IMG/VR virus record: IMGVR_UViG_3300032770_001054
Coordinates: 1 to 23,950 of that record
Source of the DNA: a virus
DNA length: 23,950 nt
Strand: one strand, 5' to 3'
Positions 6,661 through 21,663 of the stretch are shown piece by piece. The notes below the pieces were generated by a model, which worked only from the letters and a program-made list of their open reading frames with translations, was not told the origin of the DNA and ran no database searches. Numbering within the stretch: position 1 is the stretch's first letter; the number at the start of each line of letters is the position of its first letter. The position numbers were made by a program, and so were the translations under genes.

Positions 6661-6679
6661 GACGGTTCTCAGTCTTCAG

Positions 6680-6819
6680 CTATCAGTTCCCTGTTGTGGA
6701 TCGTGGTTCGTCGATCGTCGTTCGTTGCTCCACCATCTGGCATATGATCGAATGAAACCGAGAACTGAGGATCGATCACTTGTTCCAATCGACGATCGGC
6801 AATCGAAAATCGAAGATTG
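6680..6819. repeat. Intergenic paired word-repeat (inverted arms)
   Basis: Words based on TTCGTCGATCGTCGTTCG (about 6706-6725) on the left and CAATCGACGATCGGCAATCG (about 6786-6805) on the right are near reverse complements sharing the core CGATCGTCG/CGACGATCG, so the gap can fold into an imperfect long hairpin. It lies between the hub gene and the 59-aa gene. No coding frame with a ribosome site is seen. Confidence 0.6.
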
Positions 6820-7477: not shown

Positions 7478-7576
7478 CAGTAGTCTGTGGCTAGTTAGTC
7501 ACTGGTCTGCTGCTCGACGGGTCAAGTAAGGTCTTCCGGCCGCTAGCCACTCGCCACCAGCCACTAGCTACTGCCT
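7478..7576. repeat. Intergenic paired word-repeat
   Basis: Left words GGCAGTAGTCTGTGGCTAG (7478-7496) and right words CTAGCCACTCGCCACCAGCC (about 7543-7562) followed by ACTAGCTACTGCC are complementary (GTGGCTAG/CTAGCCAC; GGCAGTAG/CTACTGCC). The block fills the whole gap between tape measure and distal-tail candidate. Confidence 0.65.
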
Positions 7577-12824: not shown

Positions 12825-13039
12825 TCAGTGACAAGTGACAAGTGACGAGTGACAAGTCAACTCATCCGAAACAGGCGCCCGGGCGCGCCGGGCAATTGAA
12901 GCCATCCACCGCCGGCCGCCCCGTTCCGCAGAGGCCGCGCGGCTTCCGCTGGCGCCTGCGCCAGACCCTGCGCAGGTTCAGCCAGCCGCCGTAACGCTTG
13001 CGAGTGACTCGCTCGTCACTTGTCACTCGCCACTCATCA
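12825..13039. repeat. Inverted-arm repeat flanking a 120-bp island between capsid and decoration genes
   Basis: The left arm (12829-12863) is built from GACAAGTGAC and GACGAGTGAC words. The right arm (13005-13039) has CGTCACTTGTCACTCGCC, largely the reverse complement. Between them (about 12866-13000) lies non-repetitive, GC-rich sequence with a minus-strand open frame (RRLAEPAQGLAQAPAEAARP, then LRNGAAGGGWLQLPG) that has no usable ATG or ribosome site. It may be a decayed small gene or a cargo of the repeat. Confidence 0.6.
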
Positions 13040-13525
13040 CTACACTTTGGTCTGAGCGAAATTCAATTCCACTTGCACCACGTCGTTCAGGTTGCTGACG
13101 TTGTGCAGCGCCATGCCCACCGGATAAACCGTGGTGCCGGCGGCTTCGCTCACCGCCTTCACCCGGCCGTAGACGTCCGCGATGTTCACCAGCTGGCCCT
13201 GATTGATGGCTCCGGCCGCAATGCAACGCGCGATCCCGTTCACCTGCAGCGTCAAGCCGCGATTCTGCAGGTTGTACAGCGTGGGTGGCGTGCCCGTCAC
13301 AGTGGACGGATTCGTGCCCTGCGGCACGAAGTAGTTCGGCTCCACGAAGTGCTCCACCGTGACGCCGAGTACGCCCGGCGCGTTGGCCGCGGCGGGCAGC
13401 GCGGCGAACTGCTGCGATTGCGTCGACGGATTGGCCGTCGATTGCACCAGCGCCGTGAACTTGCAGATCCTCACGTTCGCGTCCGCCCGAAACCCGAGTG
13501 TCAGTCCGTTGGTTGCTCCTGCCAT
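13040..13525 (-). CDS. Capsid decoration/cement protein (DUF2190-like)
   Basis: This 161-aa beta-rich protein begins MAGATNGLTLGFRADANVRI. Its C-terminal half (GLTLQVNGIARCIAAGAINQ, GQLVNIADVYGRVKAVSEAA, YPVGMALHNVSNLNDVVQVE) has the short-strand, Gly-turn pattern of DUF2190/cement proteins, which stabilise the capsid at three-fold sites. The ribosome site (GGAGGAGAAA before ATG) is among the strongest here, as expected for a highly expressed virion protein. Its stop is close to the repeat element that precedes the capsid gene. It lies between the protease/scaffold gene and the capsid gene. Confidence 0.65.
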   Translation of the reverse strand: MAGATNGLTLGFRADANVRICKFTALVQSTANPSTQSQQFAALPAAANAPGVLGVTVEHFVEPNYFVPQGTNPSTVTGTPPTLYNLQNRGLTLQVNGIARCIAAGAINQGQLVNIADVYGRVKAVSEAAGTTVYPVGMALHNVSNLNDVVQVELNFAQTKV

Positions 13526-13811
13526 TTTCTCCTCCAGTTGTCAGTCGTCAGTTGTCAGTTGTCAGTTGCTGAATGACACGGGCAACTGGCAACCAGGAAT
13601 TTTGGATTGCCGGTTGGCGATTTGCCGATTCGAGGCCGGCCGTCTTCATAGGCAAGCGACGAATGACAAGTGGCCCATAAGGGATAAATAGTAAGAAGTT
13701 CCTTACTCTCTTCTCGTCTGTCAGCTTACCTGCTCCGTGTCTCTTTCCCGTCACTGGCCACGTCCCTTGTCACTTGCACTCTCTTGCCACTCACCACTTG
13801 CCCACTGGTTT
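13526..13811. repeat. Long intergenic word-repeat region
   Basis: The 286-base gap carries GTCAGTCGTCAGTTGTCAGT (13541-13560 area) answered by GGCAACTGGCAAC (about 13583), and a second zone with TCACTGGCCACG and TTGTCACTTGCAC words near 13752-13800. A small palindrome AGTAAG-AAGTTC-CTTACT sits at 13690-13707. The open frames here are repeat-encoded. I see no gene. Confidence 0.6.
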
Positions 13812-15281: not shown

Positions 15282-15450
15282 AGCTCCCTGCTCCTCGCGG
15301 CCTATTCCCTATTCATATGCAACCGGCAACTGACGAGTGACAACGGACGACTTCGCCACTCGCCACTCCCTGCGCTACTCCCTGTTCCCCTCGACCTCAC
15401 CGACGTCCAACCGACCACTGACCACGGACGGCGGACGACGGACAGCGGAC
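15200..15450. repeat. Paired word-repeat spanning the portal/protease junction, partly coding
   Basis: GTCGGTTGTCCGTGGTCGGTGG-type words (about 15212-15233), inside the protease start, are complementary (14 of 15 bases) to CCAACCGACCACTGACCACGGA (about 15408-15429), inside the portal's 3' end. The space between (15282-15374) is filled with GACGAGTGACAACGGACGAC and CGCCACTCGCCACTCC words. The element has therefore become coding at both edges, giving ATDHGQPTSR in one protein and AVRRPPSVVSGRLDV in the other. Confidence 0.55.
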
Positions 15451-16937
15451 GGACTCTCCGGCGGCAGCGCCAGTTCCTCGCGAATGAAGCTGCGCAAATT
15501 CTCTTCGCTCACCACCAGCCCCGCTTGCGCGAACTGGGTGAGCGCTTCCACGATGTCTTCGAGGCCGCGCGCCTGGACGTTGGCCGGCACCAGGCGCGGT
15601 ACCGGCGCGTCGTCGCCGAAGTTGTAGGAGACGAGCCGCCGTACGGTGCTGTTGGTGATGTCAAGCGCGATCTGGTCGGCGAGGTTCTGCAGCGCCAGCA
15701 GGAAAAAGTCGCCATGCTGCTTGCCCAGCGCGCGCGATCCGTGCTCCGACTGGCCCAGGTCCATGAACAGCGCCAGCGCCGCGCGGGAGATCATCACGTT
15801 GTGGTGCTCGATGCTCGGCGCCAAGTCGCGCACCCGCCCCTCATAGCCTACAATTCTGAATCCCGAGGCGGCGTCGCCCGGCGGCTCAACCATTCCCGTA
15901 GCCTCGTGCGCCGCCAGCTGGGTTACGAAGTTGTAGGCGGCGGCGCGGTCCTCGGCGGAAAACCCCGGCGCCAGCTTGAAGACCGGCACACCCAGGGAGT
16001 TGCGCTCGCACGCGATGGCGTCAATCCGGTAGAGGTTGCTCTTCACGTACCAGTGCGGGTACATGGGACGTTGCAGCGAGATACCCCAGAAGTTGGCGCC
16101 TTCCTGCTGGTAGGTGAAGACGCAGCACTTGTCCGCCGGCACCACGACATTCACGTATTGGCCCCCGCGGTAGCCATACTGCTCGAGCGCCAGCAGCGTT
16201 TCGCCGTCGGCCTCGGTGTGCCAGCGATAAAAGGTGATGGGCAGCCGCGCCGCCAGCTTGCGCAAGCGAACGCGGCCGCCGTCCACGGTCCAGACGTCTT
16301 CGTGCACGGCGCAGCCAAAATCGAGCATTAGCAGGGCGTTGCGCACCACGTCGTCCCAGTTCTGCGTGGCCCATCCGCCGGTCGAGGTTCGGAATTCCAG
16401 GCCGCCGAAGAGATTCGCTCTGACGAATTGCGCAATTTCCCGCCCCTTGGCGGCCGTCGCGCGACCAGCGCCGTTCGAAGAGATCGGATGATCGGATGAT
16501 CGGGTCATCGGTTCATTGTCTGGTTGATCGCCCGATGGCCAGATCACCCGATCGCCCGATGGAACGACTTCCCACTTCGCGCTCAAGACGGGCAACTTGC
16601 ACGCCGCCAAAGTCGCCCTCACCTGCGCGTCCCCGCGCCGCATCTTTTCGTAAATCGGCAGCGCGTTGCGTCCGGCCAACTCCCCGTTGTACTCGCCCAG
16701 GTCCTCCAGGAATCCGCTGACGATCGGCGTGCCGGGAATACCCAGCGTGAACGCCGTCGGCCGATGCTCGCCCGGCGGCGGCGTAGGAGGAGGTACCGGC
16801 GCGCTGGCTCCTGGTAAGAGCCAGGGCGCCGGTCCTCCGGGGGGAGGGAAACCTATTTCACGATCGCGTGTGGCCAGCGCCGTATCGAGCCGCGCGGCGC
16901 GTGTGGAATTTCCGTTCCTGTTGACCGGTCTGCGCAT
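15375..16937 (-). CDS. Portal protein, DUF935 family (Mu gp29 type)
   Basis: This 520-aa protein begins with a disordered Pro/Gly-rich 55 residues. The DUF935 core has LPIYEKMRRGDAQVRATLAA, KLPVLSAKWEV, FVRANLFGGLEF, DDVVRNALLMLDFGCAVHED, FTYQQEGANFWGISLQRPMY, ACERNSLGVPVFKLAPGFSA, FMDLGQSEHGSRALGKQHGD and the long helix FFLLALQNLADQIALDITNS. Twelve copies form the DNA channel at the capsid vertex. Length is close to Mu gp29 (about 512 aa). Residues about 126-152 (VIWPSGDQPDNEPMTRSSDH) are encoded by an in-frame word-repeat array, and the last 25 residues derive from another. No ribosome site stands out other than AAGGA. The next gene is the protease, so Mu F is missing. Confidence 0.85.
   Translation of the reverse strand: MRRPVNRNGNSTRAARLDTALATRDREIGFPPPGGPAPWLLPGASAPVPPPTPPPGEHRPTAFTLGIPGTPIVSGFLEDLGEYNGELAGRNALPIYEKMRRGDAQVRATLAACKLPVLSAKWEVVPSGDRVIWPSGDQPDNEPMTRSSDHPISSNGAGRATAAKGREIAQFVRANLFGGLEFRTSTGGWATQNWDDVVRNALLMLDFGCAVHEDVWTVDGGRVRLRKLAARLPITFYRWHTEADGETLLALEQYGYRGGQYVNVVVPADKCCVFTYQQEGANFWGISLQRPMYPHWYVKSNLYRIDAIACERNSLGVPVFKLAPGFSAEDRAAAYNFVTQLAAHEATGMVEPPGDAASGFRIVGYEGRVRDLAPSIEHHNVMISRAALALFMDLGQSEHGSRALGKQHGDFFLLALQNLADQIALDITNSTVRRLVSYNFGDDAPVPRLVPANVQARGLEDIVEALTQFAQAGLVVSEENLRSFIREELALPPESPSAVRRPPSVVSGRLDVGEVEGNRE
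16482..16562. repeat. In-frame word-repeat hairpin inside the portal gene
   Basis: The left arm (GATCGGATGATCGGATGATC then GGGTCATCGG, 16482-16511) and right arm (GATCGCCCGATGGCCAGATC then ACCCGATCGCCCGATGG, 16526-16562) are partial reverse complements built from 8-9 bp words. It adds about 27 residues to the N-terminal third of the portal without breaking the frame. Confidence 0.75.
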
Positions 16938-16947
16938 GTCCTTAACC

Positions 16948-17062
16948 GGGGCCAGGGGTCGGGGTTCGGGCTCGATCCGCGATTGGGGTCCAACCTGTAA
17001 GTCCCTGTAGCCCGTCTCCGTCCTGTTTCCTGGCCCCTGATCCCTAATCCCTAGTCCCCGCT
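16948..17062. repeat. Intergenic paired word-repeat
   Basis: GGGGCCAGG (16948-16956) is answered by CCTGGCCCC (17029-17037), followed by CTGATCCCTAATCCCTAGTC words. It lies between the 41-aa gene and the portal start. Confidence 0.6.
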
Positions 17063-17214: not shown

Positions 17215-17823
17215 TTACCCAGCTACCAGTGAAGGGTGATTTGGGCGGCCGGGAAACTCGCCGGATCCGCTTCTCCCTCCTGACCTCGCTCGCTCGATCG
17301 CCTTGGCCGCGCAATCAGGGCACATGCCGTGTGTGAAATCAGCCTCCGAATGGGCGGCGACGTAGGCCTCGACTTCATTCCAGTACCCGCGGTCATCGCG
17401 AATCTTCTTGCACCAGGCACAGACAGGAATCAATCCCCGCAGCGTCTTCACGCTCGCGATAGCCTTCTGAAGTCTGGCTTCCTGCGCGTCTTCCAACCTT
17501 CTGCGGCTGCTCACCAGCAAAGCGACCACGACGAAGAAACTGAGTACGATCGCGCCGTTCCAGAAAGGAATGAAGGCACGCCCGTATTGGCACCCGGACC
17601 GCAGGTCCACCCCCAGAAGCGATCCCGCACAGACTGCGGAGACCAAGAGCCCTGCTGTCCTCCCTGCCGTCCAACTGGCCAGGCTCACCGGAAGCAGGCA
17701 GAGACTTGAGACGGCGACTTCGTCACCGGTCACGACGTCAAGAAGCGTCACGGCGCCCACCAGACTCACCGTCGTCAGGGCCAGCAAGAGCTTCGAGTTC
17801 TCCAGGCGCTTCCAGTAACCCAT
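17215..17823 (-). CDS. Four-helix membrane protein with C-terminal CxxC signalling-type domain
   Basis: ATG 17823 is preferred over a GTG at 17877 because AAAGG lies about nine bases upstream, giving 202 aa. Four membrane helices are visible (LLLALTTVSLVGAVTLLDVV; VSSLCLLPVSLASWTAG; AGLLVSAVCAGSLLGVDL; FWNGAIVLSFFVVVALLVSS). A short coiled coil (RRRLEDAQEARLQKAIASVK) follows, then LRGLIPVCAWCKKIRDDRGY and a CPDC. That last module (CxxC...CPDC around GYWNEVEAYV) is known from the C-termini of PAS/GAF sensor and response-regulator proteins. Here no kinase or cyclase is attached, so it is a sensor fragment carried in the phage cassette, perhaps a moron. It abuts the winged-helix gene. Confidence 0.65.
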   Translation of the reverse strand: MGYWKRLENSKLLLALTTVSLVGAVTLLDVVTGDEVAVSSLCLLPVSLASWTAGRTAGLLVSAVCAGSLLGVDLRSGCQYGRAFIPFWNGAIVLSFFVVVALLVSSRRRLEDAQEARLQKAIASVKTLRGLIPVCAWCKKIRDDRGYWNEVEAYVAAHSEADFTHGMCPDCAAKAIERARSGGRSGSGEFPGRPNHPSLVAG

Positions 17824-17889
17824 GGGTCGAAACCTTTTCCCACCCTCGGCGGCGAAGGCCTTGAATCGCCCGGCCACCGTATAGGAAAT

Positions 17890-19606: not shown

Positions 19607-19990
19607 CCTGGCTTGACGAAAACCTTTCGCCTTTCCGCGAGGCAGATGTAAAAGAATTAAGGAAAGAAGGGCTTGCCGCCCCGCCGGAAGGCCAGAGGCT
19701 TTCCGCAAGGCAGGCGGCAAAGCCGCTCCTGACCCCAACACCGCCGCTGCTTGTGACTCAACACCGCAATTTTCAGCTGCTCTTCCCATCGTCTCTTCGT
19801 CGTTCCGCGCCCCAGTCAGAAGACAAGTAAGGAGAGGAACGGTTTGCCACCGGGCCGGAAGGCCCGAGCCGTTCCGCAAAGCGGACGGCAAAGCCGCTTC
19901 TCCGCCAACACGCTCTCCACCTGACCGAATACCGCCGCCCGTTCCGATCGAACCCCGCGGCTTTTCAGTTTTTCTTCCCATCGCGATCTC
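19607..19990. repeat. Tandem hairpin element with GGAA tetraloop
   Basis: Two units start at TAAGG (19658 and 19828, 170 bases apart) and end at CTTCCCATCG (19782-19791 and 19974-19983). Each has a core stem closed by a GGAA loop (GCC-GGAA-GGC at 19683-19692; CGGGCC-GGAA-GGCCCG at 19851-19866). An outer stem changes in sequence but keeps pairing (GGAAAG/CTTTCC in unit one, GGAACGG/CCGTTCC in unit two). A third stem of GGCTTGCCGCC/GGCGGCAAAGCC type follows. Traces of a further unit lie at 19607-19650. No gene is seen in 19496-20034 other than this. Confidence 0.7.
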
Positions 19991-20034: not shown

Positions 20035-21663
20035 TTAAAACACCCAATCCTTCACTCCCGAGATCACCGGCGTGCCGAACAGCCGCCCGACTTCGGCGAG
20101 GTGATACGCGTCCGGCTGCGCGGCGGCAGCCTCGGCCAGGCAGAAGGCCCACCAGTGATCGGCATGACCGAAGCGCGTGTCATGCTCGGCGTCGAAGCGC
20201 GTCAGGCCCAGCGCGTTGACGCTCTTCTTCACGCTGCGGAACGATTGCCGGATGGCGTTCGAGTCCGCCAGCCGCACCTTCTGCTCCTCCATGCGGCGCT
20301 TGGCCATCACCGCCATGGCTTCCTTTTTCGGCTGCGTAAACTGCACGCCCTCGACCTGTCCGGGAAAATCGCGCTCCAAGGCCTCGAAGATCACCAGGCC
20401 CATGCCGCCCTTGTCGATTGTCAGGCGCTTGAGCTGCGGCATCAGGGCGCGCGCCTCGCGGATCTGGTCCGGGGTCGGCGTGTTCTTCATCTCGATCACG
20501 CCGCGCGTCCAGGTGACGTCGCCGACGAGCTCGTTGATCCAGATCACCGACAGGTCGCGATTGCGGGCGATGTCCCAGCCTGCGTAAAGCATCGGGTGAT
20601 CGGGTGATCGGGTGACCGGGTCATTGAAACGGGTGCCGCCGGCTTCCGATGACCCGATGATCCGATGATCCGATGATCCGATGGCCAGATCGACGCTGGC
20701 GTCTGAACTGACGCACGACTGGAACAATTCCGGCGAGATCCATTCCGACGCTTGCGTGACGAACTGGCAGCAATACTCCTGCAGCCAGGTATCGTCGTCG
20801 CAGCCGGCGCGGACCTCTTCGGGATCGAGCGGCAGTCCGTCCTCGACGGCCATGAAGATGTCGCACCAATGGCCGGACCAGGGACTGAGAGCGTGACGAT
20901 TGGCGATTGACGATTGCCCGTTCGCCGCTTTCGACGTTCCATTCTCGCCCCCTGCGGACTGCCGACTGCCGGCTGCCGACTGCACACGCACTGGCTGGCT
21001 CACCGGTTTGACCCCCGAGTCCAGTCCCAACTGTTTCGCCAGCTCGTAGAACTTCCCCTGCTGCCCGTTAGGCGTGGAGAGAATCCGCATCGCATAGCCT
21101 AGCGAGACCTGGCGATAGACCGCCGTGAAGATGGCCTGCGAGTCCTTGTGGAAGGCGAACTCGTCGAGCACCACGTCTCCGGTGTAGCCTCGCGCCGTGT
21201 CCGGGTTGGCCGCGAGCACGATGATCCGCGACCCGTTGCTGAACCTGATTTCATGCTGGAGCGCGGAAGTGCCGTCAAATGACCGGTTCGGCTCCCACTC
21301 GGCAGCCACTCCCTTGAAGCCGTCCACCCACGCCTTCGCCTTTTCACCCAGTTCCAGCGCCTGTCGCTCTGAGCGGGAGAGAAAGATAATGTTGCGCCGC
21401 GGGTTTCTCAGGCAGCGGTCTACGGCCCAGGCTGCGGAAGCCGTCGAGTATCCGATTTGCGCGCTCTTGACGGCAATCGCGAAACGCGCTGGGTCGGTCG
21501 CCCATCGCATCTGGTATGGCCGAAGCAAGCCGTCGAGGCTAAGATTTCTGGCGGCAACCCCGAGCGTTACGCTCGGCGCCTCGGCCTCAGGATGCGCCTC
21601 TTGCGGTTCAGGCCGGGGGGCGGTCGCGGAATCAAAGCTCGTGTTGTTGCGCTTACGCTTCAT
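20035..21663 (-). CDS. Terminase large subunit
   Basis: This 542-aa protein packages DNA into the prohead. The ATPase half has a Walker A-like KSAQIGYST (residues 66-74), which resembles lambda gpA's KSARVGYSK more than a classical P-loop. It also has VVLDEFAF (164-171) with D167/E168 and the coupling motif STPNG (196-200). The nuclease half starts GWDIARNRDLSVIW (D364), with KGGMGLVIFEALERDF and the C-terminal FGHADHWWAFCLAEAAA. ATGA overlap couples it to the upstream small-terminase candidate. Residues about 227-256 and 327-358 are repeat-encoded insertions between otherwise conserved regions. It is of roughly normal length even so. Confidence 0.9.
   Translation of the reverse strand: MKRKRNNTSFDSATAPRPEPQEAHPEAEAPSVTLGVAARNLSLDGLLRPYQMRWATDPARFAIAVKSAQIGYSTASAAWAVDRCLRNPRRNIIFLSRSERQALELGEKAKAWVDGFKGVAAEWEPNRSFDGTSALQHEIRFSNGSRIIVLAANPDTARGYTGDVVLDEFAFHKDSQAIFTAVYRQVSLGYAMRILSTPNGQQGKFYELAKQLGLDSGVKPVSQPVRVQSAAGSRQSAGGENGTSKAANGQSSIANRHALSPWSGHWCDIFMAVEDGLPLDPEEVRAGCDDDTWLQEYCCQFVTQASEWISPELFQSCVSSDASVDLAIGSSDHRIIGSSEAGGTRFNDPVTRSPDHPMLYAGWDIARNRDLSVIWINELVGDVTWTRGVIEMKNTPTPDQIREARALMPQLKRLTIDKGGMGLVIFEALERDFPGQVEGVQFTQPKKEAMAVMAKRRMEEQKVRLADSNAIRQSFRSVKKSVNALGLTRFDAEHDTRFGHADHWWAFCLAEAAAAQPDAYHLAEVGRLFGTPVISGVKDWVF
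20591..20684. repeat. In-frame word-repeat hairpin inside terminase
   Basis: The left arm (ATCGGGTGATCGGGTGATCG onward, 20591-20625) and the right arm (CCGATGACCCGATGATCCGA onward, 20646-20684, with four GATGATCC-like words) are near reverse complements with a loop of about 20 bases. They add about 32 residues (LAIGSSDHRIIGSS to RSPDHPM) immediately before the nuclease domain Asp. Confidence 0.8.
20897..20983. repeat. Second in-frame word-repeat array inside terminase
   Basis: CGATTGGCGATTGACGATTG (20897-20916) and TGCGGACTGCCGACTGCCGG onward (20953-20983) are typical words of the intergenic arrays. Translated, they give QSAAGSRQSAGG and NGQSSIANRH, within the linker between ATPase and nuclease halves. 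The two word types are not complementary to each other, so this is a composite array. Confidence 0.7.

What the first reader, a model, noticed from the sequence alone, without database searches (positions are those of the whole stretch)
16482..16562. The same repeat type interrupts the portal gene in frame
An inverted pair of GATCGGATG-type words adds about 27 residues to the N-terminal third of the portal. It resembles the terminase element in sequence, with GATCGGGT/ACCCGATC arms in both, so the same family inserted twice in one phage, each time in frame.
Basis: partly seen in the sequence, partly recalled or inferred. Interest (0 to 1): 0.75.

Follow-up and report, generated by a model that had tools for sequence, protein, structure and literature searches.

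The report
Word-repeat hairpin inside phage portal gene
A short DNA hairpin built from repeated 8-letter words sits in frame inside this phage's portal gene; related phages of Acidobacteriota carry hairpins made of different 7- or 8-letter words at the same spot, so these essential genes hold a loop whose DNA is repeatedly rewritten without breaking the protein.

Summary
Window 16482-16567 is a tandem array of 8-nt words (GATCGGRT) in inverted halves. It lies in frame in a Mu-type portal and matches the arrays in the terminase gene.

The interpretation, one family inserted twice, is too narrow. The portal loop and two terminase loops are sites where related phages carry different 7/8-nt word hairpins. 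The closest relative found is a collinear element in an Acidobacteriota MAG (72-90% DNA identity). It has a TCGGGTG heptamer hairpin in the portal loop and ATTGACTC octamers in the terminase loop. 16 of 18 window arrays in the compared span lie outside the conserved blocks.

AlphaFold2 gives very low confidence to the inserts. In the terminase they are the only internal low-confidence segments.

Across dozens of unrelated words the 5' arm is G-rich and the 3' arm C-rich (77 against 11); ordinary hairpins in control phages show no such bias (56 against 54). Two portal words of three tested are enriched in their own host genome.

Most likely these are permissive loops carrying non-functional hairpin cassettes, rewritten by DNA synthesis errors and/or copying between arrays and filtered only for an open frame. 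The writing mechanism is inferred. REPIN/RAYT-like transposition, a selected RNA hairpin and break-end word addition remain rivals.

Precedents are Rickettsia palindromic elements and heptamer STRRs; this matches neither fully.

The parts
15375..16937 (-). portal gene, 520 aa (PF06074 Portal_Mu), host of the insert
   Evidence: Pfam E 9.5e-44
16482..16567 (-). in-frame octamer hairpin cassette in the portal (about residues 125-152); G-rich words first, C-rich words last on either strand
   Evidence: absent or replaced by other words in relatives
16483..16514 (+). left arm: ATCGGATG ATCGGATG ATCGGGTC ATCGGTTC
16528..16561 (+). right arm, degenerate CCCGAT words; folds back on the left arm
15410..15450 (-). 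heptamer array that encodes the last residues of the portal
   Evidence: array period 7, score 20
20035..21663 (-). terminase large subunit, 542 aa (Terminase_6N and Terminase_6C)
20588..20698 (-). in-frame octamer hairpin cassette between the ATPase and nuclease domains of the terminase; arms 20591-20621 and 20646-20690
   Evidence: pLDDT below 50 at residues 329-353
20894..20983 (-). in-frame heptamer arrays (two words) in a second terminase loop, residues about 227-257
   Evidence: pLDDT below 50 at residues 230-258
12827..13041 (.). intergenic inverted pair of heptamer arrays AGTGACA / TCACTCGCC
13535..13568 (.). intergenic heptamer array TCAGTTG
   Evidence: different word at the same gap in L235
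19108..19228 (.). intergenic inverted pair of heptamer arrays GGCAGTT / CTGCCTA
17021..17058 (.). intergenic heptamer array (CCCTAAT type)
6669..6817 (.). intergenic pair of heptamer arrays
7539..7572 (.). intergenic heptamer array (AGCCACT type)

Best explanation
The segment is a hairpin cassette of tandem 8-nt words, tolerated in a flexible loop of the portal and translated with it. It is one case of a wider process in this group of Acidobacteriota phages: intergenic gaps and a few permissive protein loops carry hairpins made of tandem 7/8-nt words. The words are rewritten in place (fold-back template switching and slippage during DNA synthesis, and/or copying from other arrays in the same cell), while the site, the G-rich-first hairpin layout and the open frame are kept. 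Shown: the insert, its in-frame position, predicted disorder, different words at the same site in relatives, the polarity rule, and the host dialect in two of three cases. Inferred: that rewriting is mutational rather than transpositional, and that the peptide has no function.
For: The same portal loop holds at least six different words in relatives: ATCGGGTG (window), GGGAACA (L085), TCGGGTG (L203), GTTTCGA (L234), AGCAGTC-type (L209, L233) and GAGACAA (L210). Terminase loop 1 has arrays in 11 of 22 relatives against 3 of 80 control segments; flanks 78-80% identical carry unrelated words. The collinear relative L235 has other words at the same sites, and 16 of 18 window arrays lie outside the conserved blocks. 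AlphaFold2 confidence collapses at the inserts. Word polarity 77:11, p 2e-13, against 56:54 for hairpins of control phages. Words matching the host: 10 hits in G010 against 0-4 in nine others; 50 in G120 against 0-8. In G001 the octamer is common (65 matches, reversed control 0) and built as forward array, spacer, reverse array. 11 of 35 arrays in sampled G010 DNA lie inside long ORFs. Template switching is known to create and maintain hairpins (abstract of PMC8794818).
Against: No closely related pair (over 95% DNA identity) was found, so rewriting in place was not caught in the act; deletion followed by a new insertion fits as well. The register test between arms is only suggestive (outer register p 0.004, inner 0.43, duplicates not fully removed). 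Template switching and slippage alone do not predict the G-rich-first polarity. The G128 word is not enriched in its own genome. Why phage DNA is far richer in arrays than the sampled chromosome (G120: 1.0 against 0.012 per kb; G010: 1.09 against 0.15) is not explained.
Confidence: 0.5

Rival explanations
1. REPIN-like mobile hairpins moved by Y1 (RAYT/IS200-type) transposases of the host, which inserted in the loops and intergenic gaps.
For: Inverted pairs with a spacer resemble REPINs (PMC3116915). All 23 genomes with dense arrays at the portal locus hold a Y1_Tnp gene against 3 of 7 with few arrays (Fisher p 0.001). Words are dispersed in the host.
Against: Array density does not track Y1 number (Spearman 0.23, p 0.22). 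Y1 surroundings show 0.21 arrays per kb, with none at seven of the Y1 loci of G120. Words differ from site to site and the cassette lacks a GTAG/CGTC tag by inspection. Genome size and kinship confound the presence test.
Confidence: 0.2
2. The hairpin is selected as RNA (transcript stabiliser, pausing or processing signal) or as DNA, so the structure is kept while the sequence drifts.
For: Strong folding in the portal and terminase cassettes; hairpins sit between genes that lie on one strand; structure is kept while words change.
Against: Several portal loops with arrays fold no better than shuffles (L209 z -1.3, L233 z 0.7) and terminase loop 1 of the window itself has z 0.5. Many relatives lack the hairpin altogether. 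No Rfam match.
Confidence: 0.15
3. Break-end writing: both 3' ends of a break are extended with the same G-rich word, telomere-like, and then joined, giving G-rich array, spacer, C-rich array.
For: Predicts the polarity (77:11), the short spacer (median 19 nt), identical words in both arms and the outer-register agreement (p 0.004).
Against: Ku is found in only 6 of 30 of these genomes and is missing from G120, G003, G007 and G008, so a Ku-dependent version fails there (MAGs are incomplete). No writing enzyme was identified.
Confidence: 0.1
4. Ordinary tandem slippage of low-complexity sequence, nothing more.
For: Heptamer and similar repeats are known to be common in some bacterial genomes (PMC4679880 introduction).
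Against: Slippage alone gives no inverted second arm, no fixed polarity and no return to the same loop with other words.
Confidence: 0.05

Closest known systems
Rickettsia palindromic elements (Ogata et al. 2000, 2002; summarised in PMC10969869)
   Same: palindromic short element inserted in frame in unrelated protein genes and translated
   Different: RPEs are about 150 bp, in families that encode a conserved peptide; here the words change from site to site and phage to phage, arms are tandem 7/8-nt words, and the carriers are phage head genes
Short tandem heptamer repeats (GGGAATC in Xanthomonas, GGGGAYT in Nostoc, TAACTGA in Beggiatoaceae; PMC4692102, PMC4679880)
   Same: 7-nt words in short arrays, mostly between genes; in Xanthomonas/Nostoc the G-rich repeats lie on the coding strand after a gene and on the non-coding strand before one, which agrees with the polarity seen here
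   Different: those genomes use one dominant word; here many words per phage, 7 or 8 nt, inverted pairs with a spacer, and in-frame hotspots in essential genes
REPINs / REP-RAYT systems (PMC3116915)
   Same: short inverted pairs that fold into hairpins and are dispersed in a genome
   Different: no conserved 16-mer, no tag, no consistent link to a RAYT gene
Borg tandem repeats in ORFs (PMC9879509)
   Same: mobile-element genes with rapidly evolving repeats that encode disordered segments
   Different: Borg repeats are direct, not inverted
Coding palindromes of Nematomorpha mitochondria (PMC6649704)
   Same: inverted repeats inside genes, gained and lost between species, template switching proposed
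   Different: perfect arms up to 284 bp without tandem words

Membership tests
Rickettsia palindromic element-like (in-frame coding palindrome) | in-frame insertion in a protein gene, absent from homologues | tested here: met
   portal loop 8-17 residues in relatives without a long insert, 41 in the window; only one sense frame open
Rickettsia palindromic element-like (in-frame coding palindrome) | palindromic, hairpin-forming | tested here: met
   RNA fold z -4.0 sense, -3.0 antisense
Rickettsia palindromic element-like (in-frame coding palindrome) | copies share a family consensus and a conserved peptide | tested here: not met
   different words and peptides at the same site
REPIN/RAYT | conserved REP 16-mers with GTAG or CGTC tag | tested here: not met
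   absent from the 81-nt sequence by inspection; words vary
REPIN/RAYT | element next to a RAYT gene | tested here: inconclusive
   0.21 arrays per kb around 40 Y1 loci, none at seven G120 Y1 loci
Short tandem heptamer repeats (STRR) | tandem units of 7 nt, dispersed, over-represented between genes | tested here: met
   most window arrays have period 7 and 12 of 18 lie between genes or just touch a gene end; the portal array itself has period 8
Short tandem heptamer repeats (STRR) | one or few words per genome | tested here: not met
   many words in one 24-kb phage
MITE | terminal inverted repeats and target-site duplication | not tested
   inverted arms present; no empty site close enough to read a duplication

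The most novel reading that the evidence does not exclude
A dedicated, directional DNA-writing process in Acidobacteriota and their phages adds host-specific G-rich 7/8-nt words at both sides of a site, giving hairpins with fixed polarity, and phage core genes evolved permissive loops where such words are repeatedly written.
Probability: 0.25. Interest if true: 0.9.

Novelty: new variant of a known kind. Interest (0 to 1): 0.7.

Why it matters
It shows conserved sites in essential phage proteins whose inserted sequence is replaced wholesale between relatives while hairpin layout, period, polarity and reading frame are kept. That makes the origin of short tandem-word repeats, an old open question in bacterial genomics, testable in a small genome. 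It offers a possible host marker, since two phage words match the host's own. It also warns that such peptides in databases are repeat-derived inserts, not conserved domains.

Tried and rejected
Rfam search of the window: no match. Portal N-part against C-part comparison as a test for recombination at the array: the script picked a wrong anchor in some sequences (L235), so it was not used as evidence; the identity step across the terminase array (79.5 against 87.7%) was not resolved from different constraint. Y1/RAYT proximity: no consistent link, although Y1 presence differs. Ku-dependent end joining: Ku missing from most word-rich genomes. Literature searches for repeats of this kind in Acidobacteria found no description in the held library. 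INPHARED phages hold only distant portals, all below 60% identity. Programmed bypassing or splicing was considered and dropped without a test, because the segment is open in the gene's frame.

Full report
OBSERVATION. Window 16482-16567 is an array of period 8 (score 32) inside the portal gene 15375-16937 on the minus strand (PF06074, E 9.5e-44). On the plus strand it reads ATCGGATG ATCGGATG ATCGGGTC ATCGGTTC, a spacer, then degenerate CCCGAT words. One arm matches the terminase array at 93% over 29 nt, the other at 84% over 31 nt. Shuffled windows give 0.1 arrays on average against 18; synonymous shuffles of the portal gene score at most 20 against 32. Of the three sense frames only the gene's own is open. 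The RNA folds well on both strands (z -4.0 sense, -3.0 antisense); as DNA the excess is smaller (z -1.8).

THE SITE IN RELATIVES. Portal relatives came from viral contigs and from 40 of 399 genomes of one Acidobacteriota class. In relatives without a long insert the loop has 8-17 residues; in the window it has 41. Related phages carry other words in the same loop: GGGAACA (L085), a TCGGGTG hairpin (L203), AGCAGTC-type words (L209, L233), a GAGACAA hairpin (L210), GTTTCGA (L234), and in L205 a different palindromic element. L005 has a decayed octamer array. Of 13 loops of 60 nt or more, 6 score at least 12 for period 7/8 against 1 of 66 control segments from the same genes (Fisher 4e-5).

TERMINASE. 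It has two inserts: octamers at 20588-20698, between the ATPase and nuclease domains, and heptamers at 20894-20983. In relatives, terminase loop 1 carries arrays in 11 of 22 cases against 3 of 80 control segments, nearly always with another word and often as an inverted pair. Flanks 78-80% identical bracket unrelated words, for example AGGGATT against GGAAATA.

A COLLINEAR PAIR. L235, from MAG G010 (a Terriglobia MAG by record title), is collinear with the window over most of its length at 72-90% DNA identity per block. In the compared span 16 of 18 window arrays lie outside the conserved blocks, which make up 70% of it, and most gaps with an array in the window have an array with another word in L235. 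L235 may be a prophage or a binned viral contig; this was not settled.

PROTEIN LEVEL. AlphaFold2 models give pLDDT below 50 to portal residues 129-159, between a strand and a helix (overall model modest, mean 51.7). For the terminase (mean 77.5) the only internal segments below 50 are 230-258 and 329-353, which coincide with the two inserts. The peptides therefore look like disordered loops.

THE WIDER PATTERN. The octamer is found in many genomes, about 22 of 54 loci in Acidobacteriota by my count of the titles. In MAG G001 it occurs 65 times against 0 for the reversed pattern, as forward array, spacer, reverse array, often ending in AAGTAA/TTACTT. Among adjacent octamer arms, forward-then-reverse is seen 43 times and the opposite twice, with some double counting of overlapping loci. 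Across all words in the phages, complementary pairs have the G-rich arm first 77 times and last 11 times; ordinary hairpins in unrelated phages split 56:54. These counts are not independent, since related phages are included. Array density is 0.75 per kb in the window, about 1.3 in the portal-clade loci and 0.05 in other phages. The element is richer than the sampled host DNA: G120 1.0 against 0.012 per kb, G010 1.09 against 0.15. The portal-loop words of G010 and G120 are enriched in their own genomes; that of G128 is not. Host genes also carry such arrays inside long ORFs (11 of 35 arrays in sampled G010 DNA), among them ORFs matching LeuA, OPT transporter and kinase families, though several lie near the ORF ends where the start is uncertain.

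MECHANISM. The data fit cassettes that are tolerated where the protein is flexible and whose words turn over by template switching, slippage and copying between arrays. Template switching between imperfect inverted repeats is known to homogenise arms and to create hairpins (abstracts of PMC8604942 and PMC8794818). This does not explain the polarity. Extension of both 3' ends of a break with the same G-rich word would, but Ku is absent from most of these genomes. A REPIN/RAYT-like route is favoured by the presence of Y1 genes in all 23 word-rich genomes against 3 of 7 word-poor ones, and disfavoured by lack of dose relation and of proximity. I therefore give about one half to the tolerated, rewritten cassette as a whole and mark the writing step as inferred.

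NOVELTY. In-frame palindromes are known in Rickettsia and heptamer word arrays in Xanthomonas, Nostoc and Beggiatoaceae. Borg repeats and nematomorph coding palindromes are further analogues. I found no description of conserved phage-gene loops holding different word hairpins, nor of the polarity rule across words, in the held library; most subscription papers are not in it.

Noticed in passing
window 16783-16838: A separate near-perfect hairpin without tandem words (ACCGGCGCGCTGGCTCC / GAGCCAGGGCGCCGGT) lies in the portal's N-terminal, proline-rich region, seen by reading the sequence.
   Followed up: no
L236 and L205 (G008), portal and terminase loops: Both loops carry a different palindromic element (CATCCTGAGCGAAGCGAAGGATCTC ... 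GATTCTTCGCTTCGCTCAGAATGACA, read as HPERSEGS ... ILRFAQND), so more than one element class uses the same loops.
   Followed up: partly
L183-L194 (G001): Octamer hairpins in this MAG often enclose unrelated interiors with further nested inverted repeats and a shared AAGTAA/TTACTT cap.
   Followed up: partly
L087 29-370: The portal N-terminus holds an amino-acid repeat GARPLDSS.
   Followed up: no
window 17215-17877: A gene among the phage head genes encodes a membrane-like N-terminus and a C-terminus with LIPVCAWCKKIRDDRGYW, which resembles sensor proteins; no Pfam match.
   Followed up: no
window 19666-19730 and 19837-19901: A 65-nt direct repeat at 82% identity in an intergenic stretch, longer than the word units.
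   Followed up: no
L238 (G112), L204: A portal of the same group with a 44-residue loop and no word array in 16 kb of surrounding DNA, so a long loop does not require words.
   Followed up: partly
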